In this document: positions 7,623 through 57,430 of the stretch, piece after piece
Layout of the letters: each line of letters starts with the position of its first letter
How positions within the stretch are numbered: the first letter of the stretch is position 1
From: Notolepis coatsorum
Lineage: Eukaryota; Chordata; Actinopteri; Aulopiformes; Paralepididae
Length of the DNA stretch: 64,000 nucleotides
Assembly (NCBI GenBank): GCA_963971535.1
Contig: OZ020585.1
Span: forward strand, 22,752,005-22,816,004
Reading direction: 5' to 3'
Made by a program: the position numbers and the translations under genes
The notes under the pieces: model-generated
Told to the model about the DNA's origin: nothing
Database searches by the model: none
Seen by the model: the letters and a program-made list of their open reading frames with translations, nothing else

Positions 7623-8040
7623 CACATTGAGTGCCAGCAGGGGGCGCACGATTTATCGCTTGAATGCCAGCCTTTTGGGACTGATTTTCCGATATTTCAT
7701 GATTTTCGCGGAGCTATTTCTATATTCTATATTATGGCTATGTGTCTAATACGCCCGTCGCTTATCAATGACTTGCTTGCAGTCAACATGTACGAAATGG
7801 ATTGTTTTTTCATCTGTACATTTCCGTTTTATACCGTTTTGAAAACCAGACGTTTTTGGAAATTTCTAGAAAAAAATAAAGATTCTGCGGAAATAGCCAT
7901 TTACTGGAATACACAAAACACGTTGTAATTTTTAGGCCTATTTATGAATCGTTTTCAAATAAACGCTAGATTATCGATAGTATATGTGTACTTATGCACG
8001 CTAGAGAAGCGGGCTGAAAATCGATTATCTATTTCCTGGT

Positions 8041-15159: not shown

Positions 15160-16772
15160 AAGGGTAAGTTCAGCATGTTGGACCCGCATCTAACTTCAAC
15201 CATCAACTCCTCCCTCAACTCGGGGGTGGTCCCCACCTCCCTAAAACAAGCCAGAGTCACACCGCTCATTAAAAAAAAAACCTGAACCCCACCGTCATAG
15301 GCAACTATCGTCCTGTCTCTCTTCTCTCCTTCCTTTCTAAAACACTTGAACGTGCTGTATCCAACCAACTCACTGCTTATCTCTTACAGAATGACCTCCT
15401 AGACCCTAATCAGTCAGGCTTCCGGACTGGCCACTCCCCAGAAACGGCCCTCATTGCGGTCACAGAGGCACTTCACCTAGCAAAAGCGAAAGGCCTCTCC
15501 TCTGTCCTGATTCTCCTAGATCTATCTGCAGCCTTCGACACAGTCAACCATCAGATCCTCCTCGCAGGAATGGGAGTGGCTGGCTCTGCGCTGACATCAT
15601 ACCTCAATGAACGCTCCTACCAAGTGTCATGGAGAGGGACCCTGTGAGCCACCCGCCCCCTGCGGACGGGTGTCTCTCAGGGCTCGGTCCTAGGACCCCT
15701 TCTCTTCTCCCTCTACACTAAATCACTGGGTAACAATATCACGTCTCATGGCTTCTCGTATCATTGTTATAACGATGATACTCAACTCTTCCTCTCCTTC
15801 CCTCCCTCAGATATCCACGTCTCTGAGCGGATCTCTGCCTGTCTGTCTGACATCTCCGCCTGGATGACGACCAACCACCTCAAACTGAACCTAAGCAAAA
15901 CAGAATTGCTCCACCTGCCGGCCAAATCCTCCCCCCTGACCGACCTTTCCATCACAGTCGAGAATGCAGCTGTGACCGCGTCCCTGACCGCCAATAACCT
16001 TGGTGTTGTCCTCGACGACCAGTTGAACTTCTCTGCTCACATTGCAGCGACAACCAGAACCTGCAGATTCCTCCTGAGCAACGTCAGAAGGATCCGCCCC
16101 TTCCTGACAAAAGAAGCCACCCAACTCCTCGTCATCTCCCGCCTCGACTTCTGCAACGCACTGCTTGCTGGCCTCCCGGCCACTGCCACCAAGCCTCTTC
16201 AACTCATTCAGAACGCAGCGGCTCGCCTGATCTCAAACCTACCGAAGTCGGCCCATGTCACCCCACTTCTTAGGGACCTGCACTGGCTCCCCATTGCTGC
16301 ACGAATCTGCTTCAAGGCCCTCGACCTGGCATACCGTGCAGCAAAGGGAACCGCTCCTGCCTACCTCCGGGCAATGGTCTCTAACTACACACCCTCAAGA
16401 CCCCTACGCTCTGCATCTTCTGGACGCCTCAGACCTACTCCTATCCGAGCTCCGGGAGGGTCATCAAAGAGAAGTCGCCTATTCACCTTGCCCCACAATG
16501 GTGGAATGAACTACCCACCCCAGTTAGGACAGCCAAAACCTGTCCAATCTTTCGCCGTCGACTAAAGACGCACTTCTTCAACCATTATCTGAAAAATAAA
16601 AAATAAATCTAACCCTAACTAACCTTACTGTCATGCACTTGTCCTAATAAACTAACCACTCAACACTTTGATGAACATTTTTACTCAGCTGATAGAGTTG
16701 TGCCCTTCCTGATGTCTTGTAAGTCGCTTCGGATAAAAGCGTCAGCTAAATGACTAAATGTAAATGTAAATG
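15160..16772 (+). mobile_element. L2-clade LINE, 5' truncated
   Basis: This is the 3' part of an L2-type non-LTR retrotransposon: reverse-transcriptase coding sequence, a short 3' UTR, and the tail AGTCGCTTCGGATAAAAGCG...CAGCTAAATGACTAAATG with (TAAATG)n repeats at 16739-16770. That tail is the one fish L2 elements share with HpaI-type SINEs. The endonuclease region is absent. Further 3' pieces of the same family occur at 40484 (reverse), 43256 and 63936. Confidence 0.9.
15290..16609 (+). pseudogene. L2 LINE reverse transcriptase (decayed)
   Basis: The product would copy LINE RNA into DNA at the target site. Visible blocks in order are NYRPVSLLS (about 15302), NQSGFRTGHSPETAL (about 15410), catalytic block A LDLSAAFDTVNHQ (about 15517), [17 protein letters not shown] (about 15668), the active-site box read as YNDDTQLF where YADDTQLF is usual (about 15768), [28 protein letters not shown], and [15 protein letters not shown] (about 16135). 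Defects: a one-base loss in the A-run near 15270-15280, an in-frame TGA at 15645-15647, a small loss after block A, and a frameshift near 16490 before the usual C-terminus. The 5' half of ORF2, including the endonuclease, is missing. This is a dead copy. Confidence 0.9.
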
Positions 16773-18314: not shown

Positions 18315-18412
18315 GTAGTATAGCTAGAGATAGTAGAACTTGAGGTAGTAGGATTATGGGTAGTAGGGCTGTAAGGCTAGAGGTAGTAGGACTAGAGGTA
18401 GTAGGACTAGAG

Positions 18413-20087
18413 TCATGAGCCTGCTTGCCTCAACGACTACCGCCCTGTAGCTCTCACCTCCATAGCCATGAAGTGCTTTGAGAAGCTAGTAAAGGGCTAC
18501 ATCTGCTCCTCCCTCCCCATTAACATGGACCCCCTGCAATTTGCATACCGCCCCAACAGGTCCACGGAGGACGCCATAGCCCATGTGCTGCACACAGCAG
18601 CATCACACCTGGACAAGAGGCAGGGGAACTATGTGAGAATGCTATTCATCGACTACAGCTCGGCATTCAATACCATAGTCCCCTCCATACTCATAGCCAA
18701 GCTCAGGGACCTGGGCTTGAACTATGACCTCTGCCAGTGGGTCTTGGACTTCCTGACGGGCAGACCCCAGGTGGTGAGAGCAGGCAACTGCACCTCCTCA
18801 TCCATCACCCTCAACATAGGGGCCCCCCAGGGCTGTGTTCTGAGTCCCCTCCTCTACTCCCTGTACACACACGACTGTGTGGCTCAGCGGAGTAGCAATA
18901 CAATCATCAAATTTGCTGACGACACAGTGGTGGTGGGCCTGATCTCTGCCAACGACGAGAGGGCCTACCTGGAAGAGGTCAAGGTCCTGGCGGGATGGTG
19001 CCAGGAAAACAGCCTCTCCCTGAACGTCAGCAAAACAAAGGAGATGATTGTGGACTTCAGGAGGTCGGGGGTCAAGGACTACAGCCCCCTCAGCATCGAC
19101 GGGGCACCGGTTGAGAGAGTCAACAGCTTTAAGTACCTCGGAGCCCACATATCCGAGGACTTGACATGGATCACACACATTGACAGTGTTGTGAAGAAGG
19201 CACGACAATGCCTCTACTTCCTCAGGCGCCTAAGGAAGTTCCAAGTCAGTCAGAAGATCCTTAAGAACTTCTACTCATATAGTACAATAGTAGTCCTGGT
19301 TTGGGAATAGCACTGCACAAGACCGAAGCAGACTACAAAGAGTGACACGTTCAGCCGAACGCACAATTGGAGGGGGGCTCCCCACCCTCCAGAACATTTA
19401 CAACAAGCGTTGCAGGGGCAAGGCTAAGAGAATCATTAAGGACTCCAGTCACCCGAACAACTGCCTCTTTGAACTGCTGCGGTCAGGCAAGCGATACCGG
19501 AGTCTCAAGGCGAGCACAGAAAGACTCAGAAGAAGCTTCTATCCCCAGGCCATCAGGCTGCTAAACGAACAATGAACACTACACAACAACAACCATCAAA
19601 CGCACATAGCACACACATCCACACGCACACACTCACTTTAAACAAACACACTGTAGCACCCACTCCACACACTTTATAGCACACACTCACTTTAAACAAA
19701 CACACTGTAGCACCCACTCCCCACACTTTATATTTATTGATGAAGGATTGCACTACAACTCGTACACCTTACTGTAAATTGTACCTAAATTGTACCTCAT
19801 CCCATTTCTGCTTTGCACTATATAGTACTGTACATTAGTACACTGCATAGTATTGTATATTATATGGTAACTCAGTTACGTCTATTCTGCATCGAACATT
19901 GTACATATGTCTATACTGAACACTGTGACCTCATTTTCTACTTCTAAATTACATGCTATACTATGTTATTTGATACTATCTTGTCTAGCACAGTCTCTGG
20001 AGCGTAACAGTAAGAAGCATTTTGTATGAAAGTATTCTGTACTTCTGTATGACAGCTATTAAAGAAACTTGAAACTTGAAACTTGAA
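18413..20087 (+). mobile_element. Rex1/Babar LINE, 5' truncated
   Basis: This is the 3' half of a Rex1-type non-LTR retrotransposon: reverse-transcriptase coding region, a roughly 500-bp AT-rich 3' UTR and a tail of (CTTGAAA)n units (about 20063-20087). The UTR holds a 54-bp direct duplication (about 19629-19735). The motif YSSAFNT matches the block used to define Rex1 in fish. It sits within the minisatellite. A possible 7-bp duplication ACTAGAG (18406-18412, 20088-20094) may be coincidental because the array itself contains it. Confidence 0.88.
18438..19575 (+). pseudogene. Rex1 reverse transcriptase (3' part, near-open)
   Basis: It starts inside the reverse transcriptase at [19 protein letters not shown] and stays open for 280 residues from 18468. 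Blocks are [28 protein letters not shown] (block A), [19 protein letters not shown], the catalytic [10 protein letters not shown] (about 18910), [14 protein letters not shown] and [16 protein letters not shown] small loss with frame change near 19285-19300 separates it from the C-terminal stretch SAERTIGGGLPTLQNIYNKR...RRSFYPQAIRLLNEQ, which ends at 19575. No endonuclease or ORF1 is present, so the copy cannot move by itself. Confidence 0.88.
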
Positions 20088-20576
20088 ACTAGAGGTAGTA
20101 TGACTAGGGGTAGTAAGGCTAGAGGTAGTAGGACTAGAGGTAGTAGGACTAGAGGTAGTATGACTAGGGGTAGTAGGACTAGGGGTAGTAGGACTAGGGG
20201 TAGTAGGACTAGAGGTAGTAGGACTAGGGGTAGTAGGACTAGGGGTAGTAGGACTAGAGGTAGTAGGACTAGAGGTAGTAGGACTAGAGGTAGTAGGACT
20301 AGGGGTAGTAGGACTAGAGGTAGTAGGACTAGAGGTAGTAGGACTAGAGGTAGTATGACTAGGGGTAGTAGGACTAGGGGTAGTAGGACTAGAGGTAGTA
20401 GGACTAGGGGTAGTAGGACTAGGGGTAGTAGGACTAGAGGTAGTAGGACTAGAGGTAGTAGGACTAGGGGTAGTAGGACTAGGGGTAGTAGGACTAGAGG
20501 TAGTAGGACTAGAGGTAGTAGGACTAGAGGTAGTAGGACTAGAGGTAGTAGGACTAGGGGTAGTAGAACTATAGGT

Positions 20577-20968
20577 AGGGTTCGAGTTATCACCTGAGAG
20601 CTATGGGGGCCCCCGAAAACCGCACGCCGCCGGAAATTTGTTTGACAATTTTTTCCTGGAATTGTGGCCGTTTTCGAAGTCATATTTAGAGGAATATCTC
20701 ATTAGGATTAGAGTCTAATTATACTAAACAGTCTAATCATTAGACTATTGTGTGATGTCATTATTCAGTCTCATTCTTAACCATAAATATTTGTTAATTT
20801 TCTTACTCACCTCTGATATATAATGCCATATTTACTTATTTGCATTTTGCATCTGATAAAATACAACAATTTAATTTGACAACCCTTAACCCTAAAAACT
20901 GAAAAGAAAAATATTATCTATTAACAATTTATTAACAATGTATTGTAATTCGTACAAAAGATATCTAT

Positions 20969-31465: not shown

Positions 31466-31850
31466 GATACAAGATACAAGAGTTTTATTTGTCACGGCAT
31501 ACATACGGCAGAACATGAAGGACTTGCTCCTGAAGTGGGACAGAATACACACAGAACATGGAAGATTTACTACGGTACGGCTCAATACACACAATTGTTA
31601 AGGGGATGCAGACCTGAGAAAGACGTTTGTCTTGTTTACATCAGGGTCCCCTATTTTCAATTCATAGTGACATTTATGACACACACAACATACATGACAT
31701 TTATGACGTAGGGACATACATGACATACAGGTATATAGTACTGTTACATTTGTGACATATACGATATGCAATATGATATGATTGAAAACTTTATTAACAG
31801 ATTGCAGAATGGGTACAATACAATAGCTTAAAGACGTGTTTTCACCATGT
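31466..31850 (-). mobile_element. LINE 3'-UTR fragments
   Basis: 31466-31510 is a reversed tail (AGATACAAGAGTTTTATTTG). 31578-31740 (CTCAATACACACAATTGTTA, CATCAGGGTCCCCTATTTTC) matches the 3' UTR at 59690-59830. 31776-31833 (GATTGAAAACTTTATTAACA) is the 3' terminus again. These are at least two joined fragments. Confidence 0.6.
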
Positions 31851-32471
31851 TAAGGCTAGACGAGGCATGATACAATACATACAATACAATACTATATATT
31901 TTAGCCAAAACATGTGGTCAGAACACAGTGCATTTAGTCCATTCGCTCTCATTCTCTCTCGGGACATCCCTATTGATTACCAATAACCGCGTTAGCCTCA
32001 GTAGCCACATACGCTGATCGGAGTGTCATTCATAGTGTAACACCCAACAAGAATGTGAAACAACTTATTAGTATTGGGTTAGAGTTGTTTGATTTCCACT
32101 AACGTAATGTTAGATTGCTATCTGAGAAAGTTACGTAACGTTACTCTACTGTATGTGAGCTGGCTGGCTGCGGCATTTGCCATGTATAATCTGTAGGCAA
32201 AACGGACTGCATATATAAACGGCTGATGACTCATAACTTCCTATCACGTTTGAATAATGCTGTAAAGTTAAGTAAAAATGCATTTCAATAGTAATGTATA
32301 TAAATTAAGAGCTTACCGATTGCAATCCACTGCCGACAGAAGAGACGCAATATTTACTTCCTAGTCCATGACGGCACTCTCTCTCTGCCTCTCTCTCATT
32401 TTGCCGAGGGCGGAGCTCGTCCAGCACGTTGTCACCAGCTGTATGAGAGCGCCCCCGCTGGTCATTGTTAA
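31851..32471 (-). repeat. Dispersed repeat E, inverted copy lacking the THAP exon
   Basis: Read in reverse, it begins at TTAA (32468-32471) with CAATGACCAGCGGGGGCGCT, contains TGTTCTGACCACATGTTTTG and AGTATTGTATTGTATG, then GCCTCG joined directly to TCTAGCCTTAACATGGTGAA. The same blocks lie in forward order at 36606-37400, where the THAP exon sits between GCCTCG and TCTAGCC. A stretch at 31972-32060 (ATTGATTACCAATAACCGCG) matches the interior of the TTAA element at 61670, so this copy is a mosaic. Confidence 0.55.
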
Positions 32472-32479
32472 CATTAACC

Positions 32480-33840
32480 ACACCAAAACGACTTCATAAC
32501 GGCAGGCAAACAGCTGTTCCAGGACTTTTCACAGCTGTATGGGGGGTCTCGCCCGCAACGATGTGCATAATACAAGTAATAATATAATATAAGAGTCCAA
32601 CCAATAGAGCGACATAGTGCAATAACAAGTAAACAAAGTAGGCATATCGGTATCTGTACATTCTTAAAGTGATCTTTCCTTCTGTAAAGTGTCCGTAGTG
32701 TGAGCGTGTGCAGCATGAGTGTGTGTGTGCTCATGTTAAAGTGGCTGCTAGTGTGTGAGCGTGTGCAGTGTGTGTGTTGTGTGTGTGCTTGTGCGTGGAG
32801 AGTTCAGTGTTCAAGGCTCTGATGGCCTGTGGGAAGAAGCTGAGCCTAAGTCTCTCGTTACTGGTGCTCGCAGGCGTTTGCCTGACCGCAGCAGCATGAA
32901 CAGGCTGTTGTTGGGGTGGTGAGGGTCTTTCATTATCCTGCAGGCTCTGGATTTGCACCTCTTGTTGTATAGGACCTGCAGGGTTGGTAGTGCAATACCC
33001 GTGGTACGCTCGGCTGAGCGCACCACTCTCTGTAGGGCCTTCTTGTCCTGTGCCGTGCTGTTGCCATACCAGGCAGTGATGTTTCCAGTCAAGATGCTCT
33101 CTACAGCTCCGGAGTAGAAGGACTGGAGTATCTTCCCAGATACTCTGAACTTCCTTAACTGTCTCAGGTGGTAGAGGTGCTGCTTCGCCTTTTTTACGAC
33201 TGAGTATGTGTGTTGTCCATGTCAGGTCCTCTGAGATGTGGACCCCCAGGTACTTGAAGCTGCTCACCCTGTCCACGGTAGCCCCGTTTATCCTCAATGG
33301 TGTGTGTGTCTCCTGCTGTCTCCTCCTAAAATCCACGATCAGCTTCTTGGTTTTACCAATGTTCAGGAGCAGGCTGTTGTCCTGGCACCAGCGTTCCAGT
33401 ACCTCAACCTCCTCCCGGTAGGCCTTTTCGTCGTTGTCCGAGATCAGCCCCACCACCACCGTGTCGTCCGCAAACTTCACTATGGAGTTGGAGCTGAACT
33501 TGGCCACACAGTCGTGTGTGTAAAGTGAGTACAGCAGGGGGCTCAGAACACAGCCCTGGGGGGACCCGATGCTCAGGGTGATGGTGTTGGAGGTCTGACC
33601 CCTCACCCTGACCGCCTGGGGTCTTTCACTCAGAAAGTCCAGTATCCAGGCGCTCAGAGCGGAGCTCAGACCCAGCTCGATCAGCTTGTCCACCAATCTG
33701 GTGGGGACTATGGTGTTGAACGCTGAGCTGTAGTCAATGAACAACAGTCTCACATAGCCCCCCTTCTGGCCGTCAAGGTGAGAGACCGCATCGTCAGTGG
33801 ACCTGACAGTGGACCTGTTCCCAGATGTTGATATGCAAAC
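32480..33840 (-). mobile_element. Rex1/Babar LINE, 5' truncated
   Basis: A reverse-strand Rex1-type copy with a reverse-transcriptase C-terminal half (33825 to about 32815) and a 3' UTR (about 32810 to 32480) rich in GTGTGTG. It is closely related to the copy at 18413. The 3' boundary is approximate because no clear short-repeat tail is seen. Confidence 0.82.
32815..33825 (-). pseudogene. Rex1 reverse transcriptase (decayed)
   Basis: The reverse strand reads [20 protein letters not shown] (block A, near 33750), [20 protein letters not shown], the catalytic [13 protein letters not shown] (about 33475), [15 protein letters not shown], and [20 protein letters not shown] frame change follows, then [40 protein letters not shown] and [19 protein letters not shown] loss near 33785 removes part of the region before block A. 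It has no endonuclease and is not functional. Confidence 0.85.
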
Positions 33841-33851
33841 AGATACTGGAT

Positions 33852-34690
33852 TGTATCTTCAGCAGTGTTGTGCTAGTTACTGAAAAATAGTAACTAGTTA
33901 CCATTGTTAGTTAGTTTATTTCAAAAGTAACTCAGTTACTTTACTGATTACTTACACCAACAAGTAATGCGTTACTGTGAAAAGTTACTTTTTAGTCACT
34001 TAAAAAACAAAAACAACATTATTTCAATTGCTCCCCTTACAGATTCTTACAGTCAAAATCTGTTGATCAACTTGACAGTTTCCATTCATTTGCATTCACA
34101 TCACAGAACTCTGCTAAGCAATGTGGTCATAAAAAAAGAATTACCACATTGTATAGAGTGGGGGTAGTGTTGTAAGATTAGGGTGTTGCCTGCTCCTTTA
34201 AGAGTGATGCGTTGTGGGATATATACAGTAGGTGGTCTACGCAAGCAGCGAATAGTCATATAGTCAGAGTGTATGCGGGAACAGTAGAGAAAGGTAGAAT
34301 TTAATTTGTGTGTAACGTTAGTCAATAACATTAAGAATAGAGAGCTGTTGTCAACCCTGAAAATTGAAATGCCCAGTCCTTGAGAGAACGGTTTCCTGGT
34401 TTACTGTCACCACTTTACAGAGGGAATTACCCCGAAGTCTGGCTAGCTGTAACAAGCACGTTACATGACCGGCACTTCAGCCCTGGAGGGTTAGGAGAAC
34501 GCTCCCCTGTACTCTACTACGGTTCAGATTAATACAGGAAAAGGTAACATTTGAACAATACATAAAAATAACGCAGTAACGAACCATTAGTAACGGTAAT
34601 TGAGTTACTGAATTTAAAAAGTAATGCATTAGAGTACTAGTTACTGCCAAAAGTAATGGCGTTACTGTACAGAGTAAAGCCCTGTCTGAA
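33852..34690. mobile_element. hAT-like element with repeated GTTACT motifs
   Basis: The left side CAGTGTTGTGCTAGTTACTG, AGTAACTAGTTACC and AAGTAATGCGTTACTG mirrors the right side AACGCAGTAACGAACC, GTAATTGAGTTACTG, AAGTAATGCATTAGAG and AATGGCGTTACTG. Such sub-terminal repeats typify a common fish hAT MITE group. The 8-bp target duplication is not resolved. Confidence 0.55.
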
Positions 34691-35929: not shown

Positions 35930-36034
35930 GGTCATTGTCGCAAAATAATTGACCTTCACTACGTTTAAAACACCTCGCCGCGGCGGCTCGGTATTTTAAA
36001 CTCTGTGTCGGTCAATTATTTTGCGACAATGACC
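35930..36034. repeat. 105-bp palindrome with 25-bp perfect arms
   Basis: Arms at 35930-35954 and 36010-36034 are perfect complements. Inside them GTTTAAAACACC and GGTATTTTAAAC pair with one mismatch, around the central palindrome CGCCGCGGCG. Weaker symmetry extends outward to about 35890 and 36070. It is probably the core of a foldback MITE. Confidence 0.85.
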
Positions 36035-36084
36035 TCGTAGCTATACATTATCCCTTACTTAATTATACAACATAACAACCCATC

Positions 36085-36475
36085 ATCTACACTCATTGCA
36101 ATGCACACACATCCACATGCACACACTCACTTTTAAACAAACATTCACCTTAACACTCACTTTAGACACTTTAACACTACATTATATTTATCTATTATTA
36201 AAGAGATCTGCACTACATTCATACCTCATTTGCATTTGCACCTTACCTCAAAGTTTTGTACCTCATTTTCTGCATTGTACCTCACTGTTTACTCATTTTT
36301 ACTGTATATTGTATATACAGTATGTATATTGTATATTCCTCTGTACTTACTTTTTACTTACTTTAATTCTTTTACTGTATGAAGCACTCTCTCAGGGGCT
36401 CGTACAGAACCAAGCATTTCACCGTAAAGTATGTGTATTTTATTGTGATAATTATTAAACAAACTTGAACTTGGA
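36085..36475 (+). mobile_element. Rex1 LINE 3'-UTR fragment
   Basis: ACACACTCACTTTTAAACAA, TTGTACCTCA repeats, GAAGCA...TTTCACCGTAAAG and the end TTAAACAAACTTGAACTTGG parallel the 3' UTR of the Rex1 copy at 19580-20087. No coding region remains. Confidence 0.65.
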
Positions 36476-36599
36476 AGATAAACTTGAATCACTTACAAGC
36501 CAAAGACCTTCCACTCTTCCCTCACTATCTCCTACTCATGTATGTCAACAACATACAGATGAAGCCATGAATTGTCCTTGGACCACCGTTTGGGCACCG

Positions 36600-37140
36600 T
36601 ATTAACGGTAACAATGACCAGCAGGGGCGCTCGAATACAGCTGGTGACGACGTGCCTGCTCATTCAGGAGGAGCTCCGCGCTCCACAAAGGGAGAGAGAG
36701 GCAGAGAGAGAATGGACAAAATGCACTGCAATGTTGTGTTCTGACCACATGTTTTGGCTAAAATACATAGTATTGTATTGTATGCCTCGTTTTATAAAAT
36801 GTCCTTTGGGTGCAAGCGATTGATAACTGTCAACGTTGAAACGGCACGAGCTCTCATTTTATTTTTTTTTAAGCGGCCGCTTTTATTATGAAATTCGTAT
36901 TATGAAACAGGAAACACCTCCACCAATGTCTTCAACTTAGCTCACTACCTCAGGAAAAGCTCCGCGCGAATGGACAAAATGCACTGCAATGTTGTGTTCT
37001 GACCACATGTTTTGGCTAAAATACATAGTATTGTATTGTATGTATAATATTGTATCATGCCTCGTTTTATAAAATGTCCTTTGGGCGCAAGCGTGTTTTT
37101 TTTTTAAGTCGCCGCTTTTATTATGAAATTCGTGGCTCTG
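36600..37140 (+). repeat. Dispersed repeat E with 258-bp tandem duplication
   Basis: CAATGACCAGCAGGGGCGCT (about 36612) matches the terminus at 32467 in inverted orientation. The block AATGGACAAAATGCACTGCA...TATTATGAAATTCGT occurs at 36711 and again at 36969, a 258-bp period. The second copy runs directly into the THAP exon. It may be the 5' region of the THAP gene or of the element that carries it. Confidence 0.6.
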
Positions 37141-37177
37141 TGCCTCACTTGTTCAAGTGTTCAACTTGACCGACCAC

Positions 37178-37300
37178 TGCCCGTGTCTGAGACCATACCG
37201 CTTGCTTCGATTCCCTGGCCGTGCAGACGACCAAGATATTCGCCAGAAGTGGATTAAAAATACCAACCGAAAGGACTTTGTTCCCACTAAAAACAGCACG
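37178..37300 (+). CDS. THAP zinc-finger domain, exon 1 (5' end unresolved)
   Basis: The forward frame reads YRLLRFPGRADDQDIRQKWI and KNTNRKDFVPTKNST, ending exactly at a splice donor (ACG|GTAGGT, 37300/37301) in phase 0. THAP domains bind DNA through a C2CH zinc site. The FP, the W and the (R)KDFVPTK block match the known pattern closely; in human THAP1 the last block reads RKNFKPTKYSS. The first zinc cysteine pair is not clear. In frame there is only CPC at 37178-37186, while CLTC lies in another frame at 37141, so the start may lie in an earlier exon or be damaged. It could be a host gene or the THAP part of a DNA-transposon transposase. Confidence 0.65.
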
Positions 37301-37647
37301 GTAGGTTTTGTCAGTCGACAATCTCACAATGGCTAATGTTAGCATACAGCTGCCTAGCCTAGCCAGCTGTCTAGCCTTAACATGGTGAAAACACGTCTTT
37401 AAGCTAACGTGCGGTTCTGCGGTGGTCACACATAATAAATGAACTCATCAGTTAGATTGATTTATAAATCTATGTGGCAAAAGCATACATGTCTTAACTC
37501 AAGGGGTTATTTTTGCATCTCACATTGCTGTGTGATATCGAGAAGATTTGGGCAGCATTTTCAACAGTGAAATGTCTATGACAGGACAATATTTTGTTGA
37601 GTTATTGTGGTATTTGTTACTCATCCTAATTATTCTTACCACTCTAG
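37301..37647 (+). other. Inferred intron of the THAP gene
   Basis: GT (37301) to AG (37646-37647), 347 bp, ends in the pyrimidine-rich tract TAATTATTCTTACCACTCTAG. It joins two phase-0 exons. Its block TCTAGCCTTAACATGGTGAA...CACGTCTTTAAGCTA (about 37371-37405) is shared with repeat E at 31.85 kb. Confidence 0.6.
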
Positions 37648-38361
37648 ATGTGTGAAATACACTTCCTGGATGCGTCTATGCTTTTACCAAACGGTTCGTG
37701 TTTCCGCGTTCCCGTTTTGTGCTCTGATTGGCCACGCACGTTTCTGGTCATGTGACATGTGCGCCCAATCGCATGACGAGCAGTGTCTTAGCCCATTTCC
37801 GCGTCGAACAGCCTGCAAACGACCTAATGCCTAGTTTATCACTGGTTAAGCTTAGGCGACTCTTTCGCAGTTGGTTACGGTTAGAGTTTGGAATCAGGGC
37901 TGGCGTTCTATCGCCATGCTCTAAGACAAACTCTAACCTTAACCAACTTCGAAAGAGCGCCTAAGCTTAACCGTCCAAAGAACTTGCCGTCACACGATTG
38001 GGCGCACATGTCACATGACCAGAAACGTCAAAGAAACGTCAGTGGCCAATCAGATTCACAAAACGCACAAACCGTTTGGTAAAAGCCATGAGGCTTCCTG
38101 GATGGCAAACCAACGAAAGAACACCCATATTCTGTATTGCATATGGGATATGAATATCATGAAAGGGTCGAAAATCAGGATCTGGGTTCTTTAATGGCAG
38201 AGACTCGGATCAAAGAAGTGGACACGAAGACAGAAGTTGCTTTGTTAGCAAGAAGATATGGTCGTTTACTGGGTTCTGAAGGTTGCATGAAAAAGTACAA
38301 ACAGATCGATCTGGACTCAATAATGAATGTTGCCAAACAAAAACTCAACAAACATACCTGA
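37648..38361 (+). pseudogene. THAP exon 2, interrupted by a foldback transposon
   Basis: Exon 2 starts after the acceptor with MCEIHFLDG (37648-37672). The MULE-like insert and one copy of its target duplication are skipped, and the frame resumes at 38105 as GKPTKEHPYSVLHMGYEYHE. It runs on through VENQDLGSLMAETRIKEVDT, KTEVALLARRYGRLLGSEG and CMKKYKQIDLDSIMNVAKQK to a stop at 38359-38361. C-x2-H (CEIH) is the second half of the THAP zinc site, and GKPT...P...GYE is the ending seen in transposase-linked THAP proteins. The roughly 65 residues after it are not recognised. The insert breaks the exon unless it is spliced out. Confidence 0.65.
37673..38093. mobile_element. Mutator-like foldback element with 11-bp target duplication
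   Basis: Two long inverted arms (37673-37890 and 37927-38093) pair over most of their length. Examples are CTTTTACCAAACGGTT, TCTGATTGGCCAC, TTTCTGGTCATGTGACATGT, TGCGCCCAATCG, GGTTAAGCTTAGGCG and GGTTAGAGTTTG, each with its complement. The loop is about 36 bp (37891-37926), and the left arm holds an extra segment of about 50 bp. CTTCCTGGATG is duplicated exactly at 37662-37672 and 38094-38104. Long arms plus a 9-11-bp duplication are characteristic of Mutator-like elements. No transposase is present. Confidence 0.85.
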
Positions 38362-38618
38362 GACTCCCTGTCTCTGCCAGTCTGTTCCTGCCTACTGTAT
38401 GTCCCCAGCTCTGCTGTCAGTGTCTGTGTACCATTTCTTGCCTGCTCTGCCTAATGACATCATTATCAAATGATTTTAGCATTTCACCTCTTTCGTATGA
38501 AATTTTTTCAACCTCTGTAGTCTAAGTCTTTGAGATATTAGGCTACTAGGGTTATTACTTTGCGTTTTGGTGTACTGAAAAAGGCTCTGTGGTCTGCCAT
38601 GTTCTACCTAACTGCTGG

Positions 38619-39030
<412 letters not shown>

Positions 39031-39037
39031 CAACCCT

Positions 39038-39292
39038 GGGTCAAGTGATAGTAAACTGGACTGGACGAACAACATCGAGGCCCTACAGGAAGGGACAGAG
39101 CAGATATTCCTGAGAAGGCTCAGGTCTTTTAATGTCTGCAGCAAACTGCTGCAGATGTTCTACCAGTCTGTGGTTGCTGGTGCCCTCTTCTTCGCTGTGG
39201 TATGCTGGGTGGGCAACACCAACACACACAAAATAAACAAACTGGTCAAAAAAGCAAGCTCTGTGGTGGGAGCGGACCTGGACAGTCTGAAT
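39038..39292 (+). pseudogene. LINE reverse-transcriptase C-terminal fragment
   Basis: The forward strand reads FLRRLRSFNVCSKLLQMFYQ and SVVAGALFFAVVCWVGNTNT, then KINKLVKKASSVVGADLDSL, preceded in another frame by a decayed LDWTNNIEALYRKGQSR. This is the common C-terminal motif of Rex1/CR1-group reverse transcriptases in fish. Both ends are lost. Confidence 0.75.
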
Positions 39293-39673
39293 CACATTTT
39301 TTTTCTTTTTTTTCTACCTTAAACAGATCTTTTTCAAGTTCCAAGTTTTAATACTCTTATCAACATGCAAGTCAACAAATGCTTGCTTTATGCAGCCATT
39401 TAACACAAAAGGATGACCCTCATGCATTGCAAATTTGCATCAAATTCAAAACAGAGTGATGCACAAAATAACTTAAAAGAAAATTATAATTTAAAACAAT
39501 GAATAAAGTGTGCATGAAATAATAGGGGAAAGAAAACGTTAGGAACTTGTTACATTCACCCACACAAGGGCTGAGTAATCACCCCCCCCCCCCTCTCTCT
39601 CACACACACTCTCCCAGCTCTCTTTCTCTCTTGCCCCTTCCTCATCTCTCTCACCCCCCCTCTCTCTATATAT

Positions 39674-40483
<810 letters not shown>

Positions 40484-45141: not shown

Positions 45142-47690
45142 CCTGGCCTGCCTCTCTCTCGTGCCCTGCCTCTCCATCCTGTGCCCTGCCTCTCCATCCT
45201 GTGCCCTGCCTCTCCGTCCTGTGCCCTGCCTCTCTCTCGTGCCCTGCCTCTCCGCCCTGTGCCCTGCCTCTCCGTCCTGTGCCCTGCCTCTCCATCCTGT
45301 GCCCTGCCTCTCTCTTGTGCCCTGCCTCTCCATCCTGTGCCCTGCCTCTCCGTCCTGTGCCCTGCCTCTCCACCCTGTGCCCTGCCTCTCCGTCCTGTGC
45401 CCTGCCTCTCCATCCTGTGCCCTTCCTCTCTCTCGTGCCCTGCCTCTCTCTCGTGCCCTGCCTCTCCATCCTGTGCCCTGCCTCTCTCTCGTGCCCTGCC
45501 TCTCTCTCGTGCCCTGCCTCTCCATCCTGTGCCCTGCCTCTCTCTCGTGCCCTGCCTCTCCATCCTGTGCCCTGCCTCTCTCTCGTGCCCTGCCTCTCTC
45601 TCGTGCCCTGCCTCTCCGCCCTGTGCCCTGCCTATCCATCCTGTGCCCTGCCTCTCTCTCGTGCCCTGCCTCTCTCTCGTGCCCTGCCTCTCCATCCTGT
45701 GCCCTGCCTCTCTCTCGTGCCCTGCCTCTCCATCCTGTGCCCTGCCTCTCTCTCGTGCCCTGCCTCTCCGTCCTGTGCCCTGCCTCTCCACCCTGTGCCC
45801 TGCCTCTCCGTCCTGTGCCCTGCCTCTCCACCCTGTGCCCTGCCGCTCCACCCTGTGCCCTGCCTCTCCATCATGTGCCCTGCCTCTCCATCCTGTGCCC
45901 TTCCTCTCTCTCGTGCCCTGCCTCTCCATCCTGTGCCCTGCCTCTCTCTCGTGCCCTGCCTCTCCATCCTGTGCCCTGCCTCTCCGTCCTGTGCCCTGCC
46001 TCTCTCTCGTGCCCTGCCTCTCCATCCTGTGCCCTGCCGCTCCACCCTGTGCCCTGCCTCTCCATCATGTGCCCTGCCTCTCCATCCTGTGCCCTGCCTC
46101 TCCATCCTGTGCCCTTCCTCTCTCTCGTGCCCTGCCTCTCCATCCTGTGCCCTGCCTCTCTCTCGTGCCCTGCCTCTCCATCCTGTGCCCTGCCTCTCCG
46201 TCCTGTGCCCTGCCTCTCTCTCGTGCCCTGCCTCTCCGCCCTGTGCCCTGCCTCTCTATCCTGTGCCCTGCCTCTCCGTCCTGTGCCCTGCCTCTCCATC
46301 CTGTGCCCTGCCTCTCCGTCCTGTGCCCTGTCTCTCCATCCTGTGCCCTGCCTCTCTGTCCTGTGCCCTGCCTCTCCATCATGTGCCCTGCCTCTCTGTC
46401 CTGTGCCCTGCCTCTCTATCCTGTGCCCTGCCTCTCTCTCGTGCCCTGCCTCTTCATCCTGTGCCCTGCCTCTCCGTCCTGTGCCCTGCCTCTCTGTCCT
46501 GTGCCCTGCCTCTCTCTCGTGCCCTGCCTCTCCATCATGTGCCCTGCCTCTCCACCCTGTGCCCTGCCTCTCTCTTGTGCCCTGCCTCTCCATCCTGTGC
46601 CCTGCCTCTCCACCCTGTGCCCTGCCTCTCCACCCTGTGCCCTGCCTCTCCATCATGTGCCCTGCCTCTCCATCATGTGCCCTGCCTCTTCATCCTGTGC
46701 CCTGCCTCTCCATCCTGTGCCCTGCCTCTCTGTCCTGTGCCCTGCCTCTCTCTCGTGCCCTGCCTCTCCATCATGTGCCCTGCCTCTCCGTCCTGTGCCC
46801 TGCCTCTCCACCCTGTGCCCTGCCTCTCTCTTGTGCCCTGCCTCTCCATCCTGTGCCCTGCCTCTCCACCCTGTGCCCTGCCTCTCCACCCTGTGCCCTG
46901 CCTCTCCATCATGTGCCCTGCCTCTCCATCATGTGCCCTGCCTCTCCATCCTGTGCCCTGCCTCTCTCTCGTGCCCTGCCTCTCTCGTGCCCTGCCTCTC
47001 CGTCCTGTGCCCTGCCTCTCCATCCTGTGCCCTGCCTCTCCACCCTGTGCCCTGCCTCTCCATCATGTGCCCTGCCTCTCCATCCTGTGCCCTGCCTCTC
47101 CATCCTGTGCCCTGCCTCTCCACCCTGTGCCCTGCCTCTCCACCCTGTGCCCTGCCTCTCCACCCTGTGCCCTGCCTCTCCATCATGTGCCCTGCCTCTC
47201 CACCCTGTGCCCTGCCTCTCCATCCTGTGCCCTGTCTCTCCATCCTGTGCCCTGCCTCTCCATCCTGTGCCCTGCCTCTCCACCCTGTGCCCTGCCTCTC
47301 CACCCTGTGCCCTGCCTCTCCATCATGTGCCCTGCCTCTCCATCCTGTGCCCTGCCTCTCCACCCTGTGCCCTGCCTCTCCATCATGTGCCCTGCCTCTC
47401 CATCCTGTGCCCTGCCTCTCCACCCTGTGCCCTGCCTCTCCACCCTGTGCCCTGCCTCTCCATCATGTGCCCTGCCTCTCCATCCTGTGCCCTGCCTCTC
47501 CATCCTGTGCCCTGCCTCTCTCTCGTGCCCTGCCTCTCTCTTGTGCCCTGCCTCTCCGTCCTGTGCCCTGCCTCTCCATCCTGTGCCCTGCCTCTCCATC
47601 CTGTGCCCTGCCTCTCCACCATGTGCCCTGCCTCTCTCTCATGCCCTGCCTCTCCATCCTGTGCCCTGCCTCTCCATCCTGTGCCCTGCC
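45142..47690. repeat. 2.5-kb minisatellite of an 18/20-bp unit
   Basis: About 130 units of CTCTCCATCCTGTGCCCTGC (20 bp), intermixed with the 18-bp variant CTCTCTCTCGTGCCCTGC. CGTCC, CACCC, CATCATG and TTCATCC variants occur, and the right half is richer in CACCC and CATCATG. The unit has no stop codon in any forward frame, so three overlapping frames of about 860-885 codons stay open, with others on the reverse strand. No start context, domain or splice site supports a protein. Confidence 0.95.
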
Positions 47691-48874: not shown

Positions 48875-50275
48875 TGTTGTGAAGGATCAGATTAAACCGA
48901 ATATGTATATTTATTTATATATATATATTTAATTGTATTTGTATATCGTTTGATATCCCCTGTATATTCCTTGTACAATATGCATTGAATATCCCCGTTT
49001 CTACTAAACAGCCCATAATAGTTTCATTCTACCATTGGACTAGAACTTGGCGCCAGGTTGCACTACCCCTAGGTTCAAGTTCAATCGTGCCGCCTAACAT
49101 GTCGAGGCAGCCCCCGGTTCCGCGCAGTAATATGCCGGGCGAAATACGTGTGGTACTATTTGTTCATAGCGCATATATATATGACGCTCGTAAAGTAGAA
49201 CTTTCCTTTTAGTCCAGTTCTTTACCCTCCAACAGAGTGACAGACGCAAAAGCCTCCCCACGAAGCACGTGCGGTGTAGTAGGGCCTACTTGGCCCAGAA
49301 TAGGCATTGAGATATCGTGTAGATTAATAGTTGAATGGTCATAGTTTGGCACCATACCGTCGAGTTGGACGTATTCTATTAAGCTAATAATAGTCTATTT
49401 ATGTATGGTGCATCGTTCGGTTCGAGTTCTACAGTTATCAGTACCCCCATCGCTCCTGACGTTATCTGGACGCTTATCCAGGCTGGTCAGACCCCTAGTG
49501 GTGATTGCATCCGAGGAGCTCCGGGTCAAGAGCGACTGGACCTGTATATTGGATTACTCTACCCGACGACGGCGAGCCTTCTACGGCTCTTGGATTATGC
49601 TTTATGTGCTTTGATTATTCCATGGATAAAGGCCAACACTGTCGAGTGTTGGAATTACCCCCCGGAGAGGACTACAGGTGAGGCGGCGCTCTACACGTGA
49701 GGTCGCACCACGTCTCTCCGTTGTGGACCGGCAGATACCGTTCCACAGAGGGTCCAGCTGTGTTCGTCTACGGCCCCAGGTTCTGTGGGCACTGGGTCTA
49801 AGACTTTGGATTCTCCCAAGACACCGTCGGCCAGATGGGATACCGCCAGCGACTTCTCTAACCCCCCCCTCCTACTGTCTTACAACCAGCGGGACCCCCC
49901 CCCCCCTTAGTGTATCCAGCTATAATTATTTAAGTACTATCGCTATCGTTTCCTAAATATTCCAGGTTGTATACTTACTCCCTGCGCAACCAGAGATTGG
50001 ACATTCAATGTTGATTTACCTACGAATACTCATTTGCCATAAAAGTGCATACTTAACATTTCAAATCATAAATGTAATTAAGTGAATATTGTGTACACCC
50101 TTTGCTGTATTAAATATTCGATTTGGTCCATTTGTGTTGGTTCGTTTCATCAGGTGGGAAAGTGTTCATCATACTTATATCTTGTACTGGGTGGCCAGAA
50201 GTTAAAGTACATGAGGTAGTGGTATTAAATATCATATCTAACAATACAGTCAGGGAATTGTACCCCTCAGCTACA
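48875..50275 (+). repeat. BEL/Pao 5' LTR
   Basis: 1,401 bp, TGTTGTGAAGGATCAG...CAGCTACA, with TG...CA ends. It is near-identical to the 3' LTR. An AT-rich TATATATATATT lies near its start (about 48917). Short open frames inside are mirrored in the other LTR and are not genes. Confidence 0.95.
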
Positions 50276-52425: not shown

Positions 52426-55400
52426 ATGGCAGCCGAATGCCGCCTAAAGAAAAGGTGCAGCCGGTGCGATGGAGCCCATCTAGATATACTACACGATAGT
52501 AACGGAAGACGGCCTACACCTGCACCACGGAGCGGTACCAAGGCAAGTGTCATGTACATTGACCCCGCCAGCAGCAACGGAGCTCAAGTGCTCTTAAAGG
52601 TAGTCCGTGTGACATTGAGCTACCAGGATAAAGTCATGGACACTTACGCCGTCCTTGATGACGGGTCAGAGAAGACCCTTCTGCTCGCCTCCGCTGCGAC
52701 TCAACTGGGACTGCGGGGGAGCAAGAACGAAATGACGATTCGGACAATAAGAAGAGATTTGAAGACGATAAAGGGCGAGAATGTCTCCTTCACTATCGCA
52801 GCCAACGGGCAGCCAGAGCGACAGTACAAGATCACAAATGCTTTCACCAGCCAAGAAATAGGACTCTCGCAGTACACCTACCCTGTCACCAAGTTGATGG
52901 ATAAATATGTGCACCTGCGCCAATTACCTATCCCGCTCATAAACGGCGCTACCCCGACCCTGCTGATAGGCTCCGACCATGCAGAACTCATAGTCCCGAT
53001 TGACCGGGTCCACACCGGTCCCCGAGGCTGTCCTGCAGCCGTCGAGACCCGCTTAGGATGGACATTACAAGGCCCCCTCGCTAAATCTCTCAACCGAACC
53101 GCAGCCACTAGCTGCTTCCACTCCCGAACGACAGAAGAAGACACCACTCTCCTGCAGCATGTCGAGAGGCTATGGACCCTAGAGACAATGCCCTTTAAGA
53201 ACGAAAAGAAAGACATTCGCTCTAAAGAAGACATTTACGCCATCCACCTACTCGAGCAGGGGACAAAGAGAGTCACAGTCGGCGGAGTGATGAGATACGC
53301 AACTCCACTCCTGAGGAGAGAGGGAATGCCCCCCTTTCACGCAAAGAAAGACGCCACGGAGCGCTATCTACTGAACACAGAGCGGCGCCTAGCCAAAGAC
53401 CCCGCTCAACAGAGTGTGTACCGAGCTGAGATTGAGAAGCTAATCACAGCGGGACACGTAACAAAGATTGACATTAAAGAGGCCGATCAGACGACCGAAT
53501 CATGGTACGTGCCGCATCACAAGGTCCATCACAATGGCAAGGATCGCATTGTGTTTAACTGCAGCTACCAGATCGGATCCCAAAATCTGAATAAAGAGCT
53601 TTTGCCCGGCCCCACACTCGGCCCCTCCCTACTAGGCGTGCTACTGCGCTTCCGCCAGGACAAGGTGGCTATAAGCGGGGATATCAAAGGGATGTTCTTG
53701 CAAGTGAGACTAGTAGAGGAGGACAAGCCTCTGCTACGGTTCCTATGGAGAGAGAAGATCGGAGATGAGAACCCATCCATCTACCAGTGGGAAGTACCCC
53801 CCTTCGGAACCACATGCAGCCCGTGCTGTGCTACATTTGCACTACAGAAACACGTCACAGAGGACCCAGCAGCAAATGAAGAGGTCCAACACAGTGTGAA
53901 GAACAGTTTCTACATAGACAACTGTCTACAAAGCGTCTCGACTCAAGAAGAAGCCGAGGCTCTCCTAATCAAGTTACGCGCCTCCCTAATCAAAGGAGGC
54001 TTTGATCTCAGGCAGTGGGCCAGCAGTGACCCGCACGTATTGCGCAGCCTCTCCTCCGCAGACAAGGCTGCCAGCAGCGAGACCTGGATGGCGACAATCC
54101 CAGGAGAAGCCCAAGAAATGACACTAGGATTAGTCTGGCGCTTCAAAACAGACTCGCTCCACTATAGACACAAACCCTTGGCTCCAGAGCAAGGAAGGTC
54201 GGCGGCGATACCGACCACCAGACGGAGTGTGTACAGAACACTCGCCAGACAATATGACCCGCTGGGATGTATTCTACCTTACACCACCAGGGCAAAGATG
54301 ATTGTACGAGCACTATGGGACAAGGACCAGGGCTGGGACGACCCAATACCCGCACACCTTGCCTCAACATGGAGAGAGTGGGAGACGGAACTCCGCTCAC
54401 TCCCAGGTGTTAATATACGCCGCAGCTACTTCCCATCCACTGTGAGGCCAGAGACATGCGAGATTGAGCTACACGTCTTCAGCGATGCCTCCGAAGTAGC
54501 CTACGGATCGGTTGCTTATTTGCATGCCCAAGAGATGGGAGGAGAGATACACACTGCTTTCATACTGGCCCGCTCAAGGATAGCCCCACGTAAGCAACAA
54601 TCTATCCCACGTCTAGAGCTCTGCGCAGCCCTCGCAGGAGCGCATCTAGCCACGTTAATCCAACGTGAACTCACCATTCCGGTGCATAGAACAATCTTGT
54701 GGTCAGATTCCACGACAGTACTCACATGGATTAAGTCTGATTCATGCAGATACAAAGTCTTCGTGGGAGTCAGAGTCACCGAGATTCAGGAACTAACAGA
54801 AGAAGCAAGCTGGAGATATGTGGATACCAAACACAACCCAGCTGACGTCATCACCCGGGGAATGTCCCTGGATGACCTAACCCGTCACAACATCTACAGT
54901 GACGGACCAGCATTCCTCCAGCTCCCGGAAGGAGATTGGCCTACGCCCACCCCGAGGGAAGCAAGTAGAGAGGAGGCTGAGAACAAGAAGCCTATGTTCT
55001 GTGGACTGAGCACTGTCGCCTCCACAGACCCGAACATAGATGACTGCATTACCCTAGAGAGTGCGCAACAAAGGACATTCCTGCGGCACCACCCAGAGAT
55101 TCAGTCCACCACTGACATGTCAGCAGCTGACTACGAAGAAGCAGAACTTCTTCTACTACAACGAGCCCAGAGAGACTCGTTCCCCGATGAGCTAGACTGT
55201 CTACAGGGAGGAAACCCCGTCCCATCAGACAGCAGACTGATTCACCTGGCACCAGAGAGTGACGCACATAATCTCATCAGAGTGGGTGGTCGCCTGCGGA
55301 GAGCCCCCGATCTACCAGATGACATTAAGCACCCGATCGTCTTGAACAGCCGACACAAGGTCACAGAGCTGATCATAAAGAAATACGACGAGGATGTGCA

Positions 55401-56027: not shown

Positions 56028-57430
56028 TGTTGTGAAGGATCAGATTAAACCGAATATGTATATTTATTTATATATATATATTTAATTGTATTTGTATATC
56101 GTTTGATATCCCCTGTATATTCCTTGTACAATATGCATTGAATATCCCCGTTTCTACTAAACAGCCCATAATAGTTTCATTCTACCATTGGACTAGAACC
56201 TGGCGCCAGGTTGCCATACCCCTAGGTTCAAGTTCAATCGTGCCGCCTAACATGTCGAGGCAGCCCCCGGTTCCGCGCAGTAATATGCCGGGCGAAATAC
56301 GTGTGGTACTATTTGTTCATAGCGCATATATATATGACGCTCGTAAAGTAGAACTTTCCTTTTAGTCCAGTTCTTTACCCTCCAACAGAGTGACAGACGC
56401 AAAAGCCTCCCCACGAAGCACGTGCGGTGTAGTAGGGCCTACTTGGCCCAGAATAGGCATTGAGATATCGTGTAGATTAATAGTTGAATGGTCATAGTTT
56501 GGCACCATACCGTCGAGTTGGACGTATTCTATTAAGCTAATAATAGTCTATTTATGTATGGTGCATCGTTCGGTTCGAGTTCTACAGTTATCAGTACCCC
56601 CATCGCTCCTGACGTTATCTGGACGCTTATCCAGGCTGGTCAGACCCCTAGTGGTGATTGCATCCGAGGAGCTCCGGGTCAAGAGCGACTGGACCTGTAT
56701 ATTGGATTACTCTACCCGACGACGGCGAGCCTTCCACGGCTCTTGGATTATGCTTTATGTGCTTTGATTATTCCATGGATAAAGGCCAACACTGTCGAGT
56801 GTTGGAATTACCCCCCGGAGAGGACTACAGGTGAGGCGGCGCTCTACACGTGAGGTCGCACCACGTCTCTCCGTTGTGGACCGGCAGATACCGTTCCACA
56901 GAGGGTCCAGCTGTGTTCGTCTACGGCCCCAGGTTCTGTGGGCACTGGGTCTAAGACTTTGGATTCTCCCAAGACACCGTCGGCCAGATGGGATACCGCC
57001 AGCGACTTCTCTAACCCCCCCCTCCTACTGTCTTACAACCAGCGGGACCCCCCCCCCCCCCTTAGTGTATCCAGCTATAATTATTTAAGTACTATCGCTA
57101 TCGTTTCCTAAATATTCCAGGTTGTATACTTACTCCCTGCGCAACCAGAGATTGGACATTCAATGTTGATTTACCTACGAATACTCATTTGCCATAAAAG
57201 TGCATACTTAACATTTCAAATCATAAATGTAATTAAGTGAATATTGTGTACACCCTTTGCTGTATTAAATATTCGATTTGGTCCATTTGTGTTGGTTCGT
57301 TTCATCAGGTGGGAAAGTGTTCATCATACTTATATCTTGTACTGGGTGGCCAGAAGTTAAAGTACATGAGGTAGTGGTATTAAATATCATATCTAACAAT
57401 ACAGTCAGGGAATTGTACCCCTCAGCTACA
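56028..57430 (+). repeat. BEL/Pao 3' LTR
   Basis: 1,403 bp, the direct repeat of the 5' LTR, differing at only a few sites including the length of a C-run. It ends CAGCTACA directly against (ATA)n. Confidence 0.95.

What the first reader, a model, noticed from the sequence alone, without database searches (positions are those of the whole stretch)
37178..38361. A spliced THAP zinc-finger gene broken by a foldback transposon
Exon 1 (…RKDFVPTKNST, donor GTAGGT at 37301) and exon 2 (MCEIHFLDG…, acceptor at 37646-37647) are both phase 0. Joined, they give a THAP core with W, RKDFVPTK and CEIH. Exon 2 contains a 421-bp insert bounded by an exact 11-bp duplication. On either side of the insert the reading frame agrees (HFLDG | GKPTKEHPYS). 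It is the only gene-like structure in the window, and the insert makes this copy a recent loss or a spliced variant.
Basis: partly seen in the sequence, partly recalled or inferred. Interest (0 to 1): 0.85.

Follow-up and report, generated by a model that had tools for sequence, protein, structure and literature searches.

The report
Broken fish transposon zinc-finger remnant
Two pieces of a fish DNA-binding (THAP) domain, of a kind often carried by jumping genes, lie here as a probable leftover that a second, hairpin-shaped jumping element has split; a similar nested leftover is already known in medaka fish.

Summary
The main observation holds: a THAP piece ending at 37300, a GT donor at 37301, an AG acceptor at 37646-37647, and a 421-bp palindromic insert (37673-38093) between exact 11-bp repeats. 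The spliced peptide passes Pfam's THAP cut-off, the proposed splice scores best of 405, and 14 of 14 aligned fish relatives are continuous where the insert sits. Of 15 relatives found, 6 carry a transposase helix-turn-helix and 5 of these also DDE_Tnp_4, as in ISL2EU/Harbinger-like transposons. No N-terminal THAP part (first cysteine pair) and no transposase part was found in the window, so the copy looks incomplete apart from the insert. A shorter inverted copy of its 5' flank lies 4-5 kb away without exon 1. It is not the only gene-like structure: reverse-transcriptase ORFs are present. Most likely: a transposon remnant hit by a foldback MITE-like element. Close precedent: medaka Izanagi, a degenerate three-exon THAP split by another element (PMC2820524, passages). 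The genome search did not complete (12 tries), so copy number and a host-gene origin stay open. Low interest.

The parts
36602..37133 (+). 5' flank of the THAP piece with an imperfect tandem duplication (36710-36898 / 36968-37133), also present in an inverted copy elsewhere in the window
37178..37300 (+).
   Evidence: tblastn E 6e-19 with P0001; family profile 86.4 bits against 9.3 for the next of 2984 six-frame fragments
37301..37647 (+). Intron, GTAGGT...CTCTAG, phase 0
37648..37672 (+). Second THAP piece, 5' part (MCEIHFLD), up to the insert
   Evidence: raises the Pfam THAP score from 19.7 to 31.2 bits
37662..37672 (+). Left copy of the 11-bp target-site duplication
37673..38093 (.). 421-bp foldback (palindromic, MITE-like) insertion; reading from exon 2 stops inside it at 37753-37755
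38094..38104 (+). Right copy of the 11-bp target-site duplication
38095..38160 (+). Second THAP piece, 3' part (FLDGKPTKEHPYSVLHMGYEYH)
   Evidence: tblastn 83% identity over 23 residues with P0001, E 3e-8; profile 46.4 bits against 8.9 for the next fragment
38161..38361 (+). 66-codon open tail with stop; no relative found
   Evidence: open in 0.76% of 5000 mononucleotide shuffles
31824..32477 (-). Shorter inverted copy of the 5' flank; what corresponds to about 37066-37368, including exon 1, is absent from it
   Evidence: four aligned pieces, the last 38 of 38 identical to intron 37369-37406

Best explanation
This is a remnant of a fish DNA transposon that encoded a THAP-type DNA-binding domain, of the kind found on DDE_Tnp_4 transposases (ISL2EU/Harbinger-like group). 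Two THAP exons and the intron between them survive. A small non-autonomous foldback element later jumped into the second exon, duplicating 11 bp of target; insert plus duplication is 432 bp, a multiple of three, so the frame happens to agree on both sides. Read as it stands, the protein ends inside the insert, before the rest of the THAP domain, so no working DNA-binding protein is expected. Shown: THAP homology, splice sites, insert and duplication, and that no first cysteine pair or transposase part was found in the window. Inferred: transposon rather than host origin, insertion by a transposase encoded elsewhere, and lack of function.
For: Pfam THAP 31.2 bits against a cut-off of 23.9. 33 of 41 exon-1 residues identical to Megalops P0001; tblastn E 6e-19 and 3e-8 for the two pieces. 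6 of 15 relatives carry HTH_Tnp_4, 5 of these also DDE_Tnp_4. 14 of 14 aligned relatives are continuous at the insert point. Insert anatomy. A repeated 5' flank with a deleted inverted copy nearby fits a mobile family. ISL2EU transposases are described with DDE, HTH and THAP domains (PMC4482050, passages) and as present in teleosts (PMC9179366, passages).
Against: No HTH, DDE or N-terminal THAP part was found in the window, and the ends of the supposed host transposon were not identified. 9 of 15 relatives have no transposase domain listed; one of them (P0010) is a C2H2 zinc-finger protein, so the module also sits in gene-like proteins. The 66-codon tail stays open more than shuffles suggest and is not clearly like the linkers of the relatives (P0011 and P0014 p 0.002 each, but p 0.066 for the best over all 14).
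Confidence: 0.7

Rival explanations
1. A host THAP gene (a transposon-derived but co-opted DNA-binding protein) was recently broken by the foldback insertion; its first exon is outside the window or too diverged to see.
For: Apart from the insert, no stop or frame shift is seen in the two THAP pieces. The tail is open for 66 codons (0.76% of shuffles). 9 of 15 relatives have no transposase domain listed. The duplication is exact.
Against: No N-terminal exon in 37 kb upstream or elsewhere in the window. The flank is repeated and one copy lacks exon 1. No relative of the tail was found.
Confidence: 0.17
2. A non-autonomous element of the P superfamily (like medaka Izanagi) that carries a degenerate THAP domain without a transposase.
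For: Izanagi is a 1316-bp element without transposase whose consensus gives a THAP domain of three putative exons, split by a Rex1 insertion in one copy (PMC2820524, passages). Two exons here would match its last two.
Against: The Izanagi terminal repeat is absent: 0 matches with up to 3 mismatches, best of the window 10 mismatches, as in shuffles (8-10). The nearest relatives found carry DDE_Tnp_4, not a P-type transposase.
Confidence: 0.08
3. The locus still makes a protein: either a truncated THAP peptide or one in which the insert is removed by splicing.
For: 2 of 71 in-frame GT-AG pairs across the insert give no stop.
Against: Both use one acceptor without a pyrimidine tract and add 11 or 13 residues inside the THAP domain; the plain reading stops at 37753-37755; no first cysteine pair was found.
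Confidence: 0.04

Closest known systems
Fish proteins with this THAP module (P0001 Megalops atlanticus, P0002 Epinephelus moara, P0003 Cololabis saira, P0013 Oryzias latipes and others)
   Same: 23 to 33 of 41 residues identical in exon 1 over the 12 relatives aligned there without gaps; same residues on both sides of the insert point
   Different: Relatives have the N-terminal part with TCAVxxC and, in 6 of 15, HTH_Tnp_4 with or without DDE_Tnp_4; none of this was found here
ISL2EU / Harbinger-like transposons of teleosts
   Same: THAP domain on a transposase with HTH and DDE domains (PMC4482050, PMC9179366, passages)
   Different: No transposase, no terminal repeats recognised here; YqaJ ORF not sought
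Izanagi element of medaka (PMC2820524, passages)
   Same: Degenerate THAP domain in several exons inside a fish transposable element, with an exon disrupted by a nested element
   Different: There a Rex1 insertion; here a foldback element. Izanagi's 27-bp terminal repeat is not in this window
Foldback elements and MITEs; Mutator-like elements
   Same: Long inverted arms, no coding capacity seen, target-site duplication. MULEs have long inverted repeats and 8-10 bp duplications (PMC5225508, passages)
   Different: The repeat here is 11 bp, longer than the 8 bp of P elements (PMC10983969, passages) and the 8-10 bp given for MULEs; superfamily not assigned

Membership tests
THAP domain (PF05485) | Profile score above Pfam's curated cut-off | tested here: met
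   31.2 bits against 23.9 for the spliced 46 residues (protein 1); exon 1 alone 19.7, not met
THAP domain (PF05485) | Full C2CH zinc site (C-x2-4-C ... C-x2-H; motif recalled) | tested here: not met
   C-E-I-H present in exon 2; N-terminal cysteine pair not found: best of 2984 fragments 8.9 bits, E 0.21; tblastn
ISL2EU/Harbinger-like transposon | DDE transposase with HTH | tested here: not met
   tblastn of 15 relatives, including those with HTH_Tnp_4/DDE_Tnp_4, gave no credible match to those parts in the window
ISL2EU/Harbinger-like transposon | Terminal inverted repeats and short AT-rich target duplication | tested here: inconclusive
   No convincing inverted repeat flanking the THAP pieces in 36000-40000; ends unknown
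ISL2EU transposon | Second ORF with YqaJ domain | not tested
   not sought
Foldback/MITE insertion | Long complementary arms | tested here: met
Foldback/MITE insertion | Direct target-site duplication at both ends | tested here: met
   11 of 11 bp
Foldback/MITE insertion | Many copies in the genome | tested here: inconclusive
   No second copy in the 64-kb window; genome search unanswered (12 calls)
Izanagi (medaka) | 27-bp terminal inverted repeat | tested here: not met
   0 matches with up to 3 mismatches; best 10 mismatches, as in shuffles

The most novel reading that the evidence does not exclude
A short THAP-only protein with a lineage-specific 66-residue tail existed here, either a co-opted host regulator or a transposon-encoded repressor, and a recent foldback insertion switched this allele off; intact alleles may still segregate.
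Probability: 0.1. Interest if true: 0.35.

Novelty: new member of a known kind. Interest (0 to 1): 0.15.

Why it matters
It shows one transposable element nested in the coding exon of another, with the splice sites and the insertion scar still readable, and it documents a fish THAP module that recurs with transposase, zinc-finger and other partners. It does not change any open question, since the same kind of nested, degenerate THAP element is described in medaka (PMC2820524, passages).

Tried and rejected
Searched for the missing N-terminal THAP exon and for transposase parts by tblastn with 15 relatives and by profiles on 2984 six-frame fragments: only the two known pieces stood out; the 8-residue exon-2 start scored 6.7 bits, E 1.2, and is not distinguishable on its own. 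The 66-residue tail: no match at E 10 or better among 4 candidates in the protein collection (lengths about 102-325 only), no Pfam family, PDB matches no better than E 0.065 and judged chance, linker comparison not significant over all 14. Foldback insert in viral contigs: 0 hits for one 17-mer, one 18-bp exact match for another, which did not extend; judged chance. tRNA and Rfam: 0 matches. Izanagi terminal repeat: absent. Paper searches; none of the listed titles or abstract openings named this foldback element, which is no proof that it is unpublished.

Full report
What is in the sequence. The stretch 37178-37300 reads CPCLRPYRLLRFPGRADDQDIRQKWIKNTNRKDFVPTKNST in one open frame (open from 37127), followed by GTAGGT at 37301; TCTAG ends at 37647 and ATG TGT GAA ATA CAC begins at 37648. 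Both sides are phase 0. In the second piece CTTCCTGGATG occurs at 37662-37672 and again at 38094-38104, with 421 bp between them. These 421 bp fold back on themselves: 137 of 144 aligned half-to-half positions agree, score 145 against at most 47 in 200 shuffles, and the single strand folds at -155.9 kcal/mol, z -23.68, 0 of 100 shuffles as stable. An exact 11-bp repeat abutting both ends of such a palindrome is a target-site duplication; a chance match of 11 given positions has a probability of 2.4e-7.

THAP homology. Exon 1 alone scores 19.7 bits against Pfam THAP, below the cut-off of 23.9. Spliced to the start of exon 2 it scores 31.2. In the PDB the best match is human THAP2, E 0.003, then THAP1, E 0.038-0.04, and THAP11, E 0.16 ('human' is recalled). 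Among 405 donor/acceptor pairs kept, the pair 37301/37647 gives the best profile score, 88.2 bits; the same acceptor with donor 37310 gives 82.1, the best other acceptor 81.8, exon 1 alone 73.0. So the splice is supported, though the margin rests on a few residues.

Relatives. A first search found one protein among 35 candidates, P0001 of Megalops atlanticus. A second, with the first 112 residues of P0001, found 15 proteins at E 0.001 or better among 19 candidates, all named as fish, P0001 itself included. Listed Pfam domains: THAP in 13 of 15, HTH_Tnp_4 in 6 of 15 (P0002, P0003, P0004, P0008, P0013, P0015), DDE_Tnp_4 in 5 of these 6 (not P0008). P0010 is a C2H2 zinc-finger protein, and P0009 has a Mutator-like match just below the cut-off (25.3 against 26.5). 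For the alignment P0012 was left out as an isoform of P0011, leaving 14. In exon 1, 12 of the 14 align over 41 residues without gaps, with 23 to 33 identities (33 in P0001); P0013 and P0015 differ in length exactly towards the exon end, which may reflect an intron there in other fishes too, but these are gene models. In 14 of 14 the motif across the insert point is unbroken (VCG[IV][HP]Fx[DE]GxPT). That is the empty site at protein level; no DNA empty site could be obtained.

What is missing. Relatives begin with a part carrying TCAVxxC and continue into a linker and, in some, HTH and DDE domains. tblastn with the 15 proteins found in the window only the two THAP pieces with convincing scores. 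Profiles of the three parts on 2984 six-frame fragments gave 86.4 bits for exon 1 and 46.4 for the 3' part of exon 2, but only 8.9 bits (E 0.21) for the best N-terminal candidate, at 7656-7745 and so unrelated. A THAP domain without its first cysteine pair should not bind zinc in the usual way (established knowledge of the family, recalled). Read without removing anything, exon 2 stops at 37753-37755 inside the insert.

Surroundings. The 500 bp upstream of exon 1 are an imperfect tandem duplication. Parts of it recur inverted at 31824-32477, together with 38 of 38 identical bases of the intron (37369-37406); in that copy the sequence corresponding to about 37066-37368, exon 1 included, is absent. 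This looks like a deleted copy of one repeat family, which favours a mobile element over a single host gene; but common ends were not identified and no flanking inverted repeat was evident in 36000-40000.

The tail. After GYEYH the frame continues for 66 codons to a stop at 38359-38361. Only 0.76% of 5000 mononucleotide shuffles stay open that long, so it may have been coding. No relative was found: 4 candidates and none at E 10 or better, no Pfam family, PDB best E 0.065. Against the linkers of the 14 relatives, P0011 and P0014 reach p 0.002 each, but the best over all 14 has p 0.066: inconclusive. This is the main reason not to close the host-gene reading.

Mechanism. Shown: two THAP exons, one intron, one nested palindromic element with target duplication. 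Inferred: the THAP exons come from a transposase gene of the ISL2EU/Harbinger-like group, whose members carry DDE, HTH and THAP domains (PMC4482050, passages; PMC9179366, passages). The nested element was presumably moved in trans. Its superfamily is open: P-like elements duplicate 8 bp (PMC10983969, passages), MULEs 8-10 bp and have long inverted repeats (PMC5225508, passages); 11 bp may be a shorter duplication lengthened by chance. The P-superfamily element Galileo also has long foldback-like arms, bound by its own THAP domain (PMC3688188, passages), but nothing here ties the insert to a THAP transposase. Splicing out of the insert is possible on paper for 2 of 71 in-frame GT-AG pairs, both poor.

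Comparison with what is known. The nearest case is Izanagi of medaka: a 1316-bp element without transposase, with a degenerate THAP domain of three putative exons, the second split by another element (PMC2820524, passages). The present locus is the same kind of thing with another nested element; it is not Izanagi, whose terminal repeat is not in the window. I do not file it as a member of ISL2EU, since its DDE and HTH parts were sought and not found.

Limits. The search of the window's own genome did not complete in 12 tries, so copy number, ends, age and allele state are unknown. The organism is not identified; that it is a fish is inferred from the relatives. Verdict: observation largely right, interpretation partly right, ordinary for a fish genome.

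Noticed in passing
48875-50245 and 56028-57400: Direct repeats 99.56% identical over 1373 columns (second one cut by the stretch I compared), enclosing ORFs of 701 and 1174 aa; reverse transcriptase in 53401-54300: a young LTR-retrotransposon-like element.
   Followed up: partly
15273-15647, 18411-19310, 33222-33858 (-): ORFs with Pfam RVT_1, non-LTR retroelement-like; the second also matches ALKBH8_N.
   Followed up: partly
45161-47690: Tandem array of a 20-bp unit, 129.5 copies, open in several frames on both strands.
   Followed up: no
20088-20578: Tandem array of a 15-bp unit, 32.7 copies.
   Followed up: no
31824-32477 (-): Inverted, internally deleted copy of the repeat that precedes the THAP piece.
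   Followed up: partly
P0009 (Carassius auratus), P0010 (Corythoichthys intestinalis): The same THAP module joined to a Mutator-like region (below cut-off) and to C2H2 zinc fingers, suggesting that the module has been shuffled in fishes, if the gene models are right.
   Followed up: no
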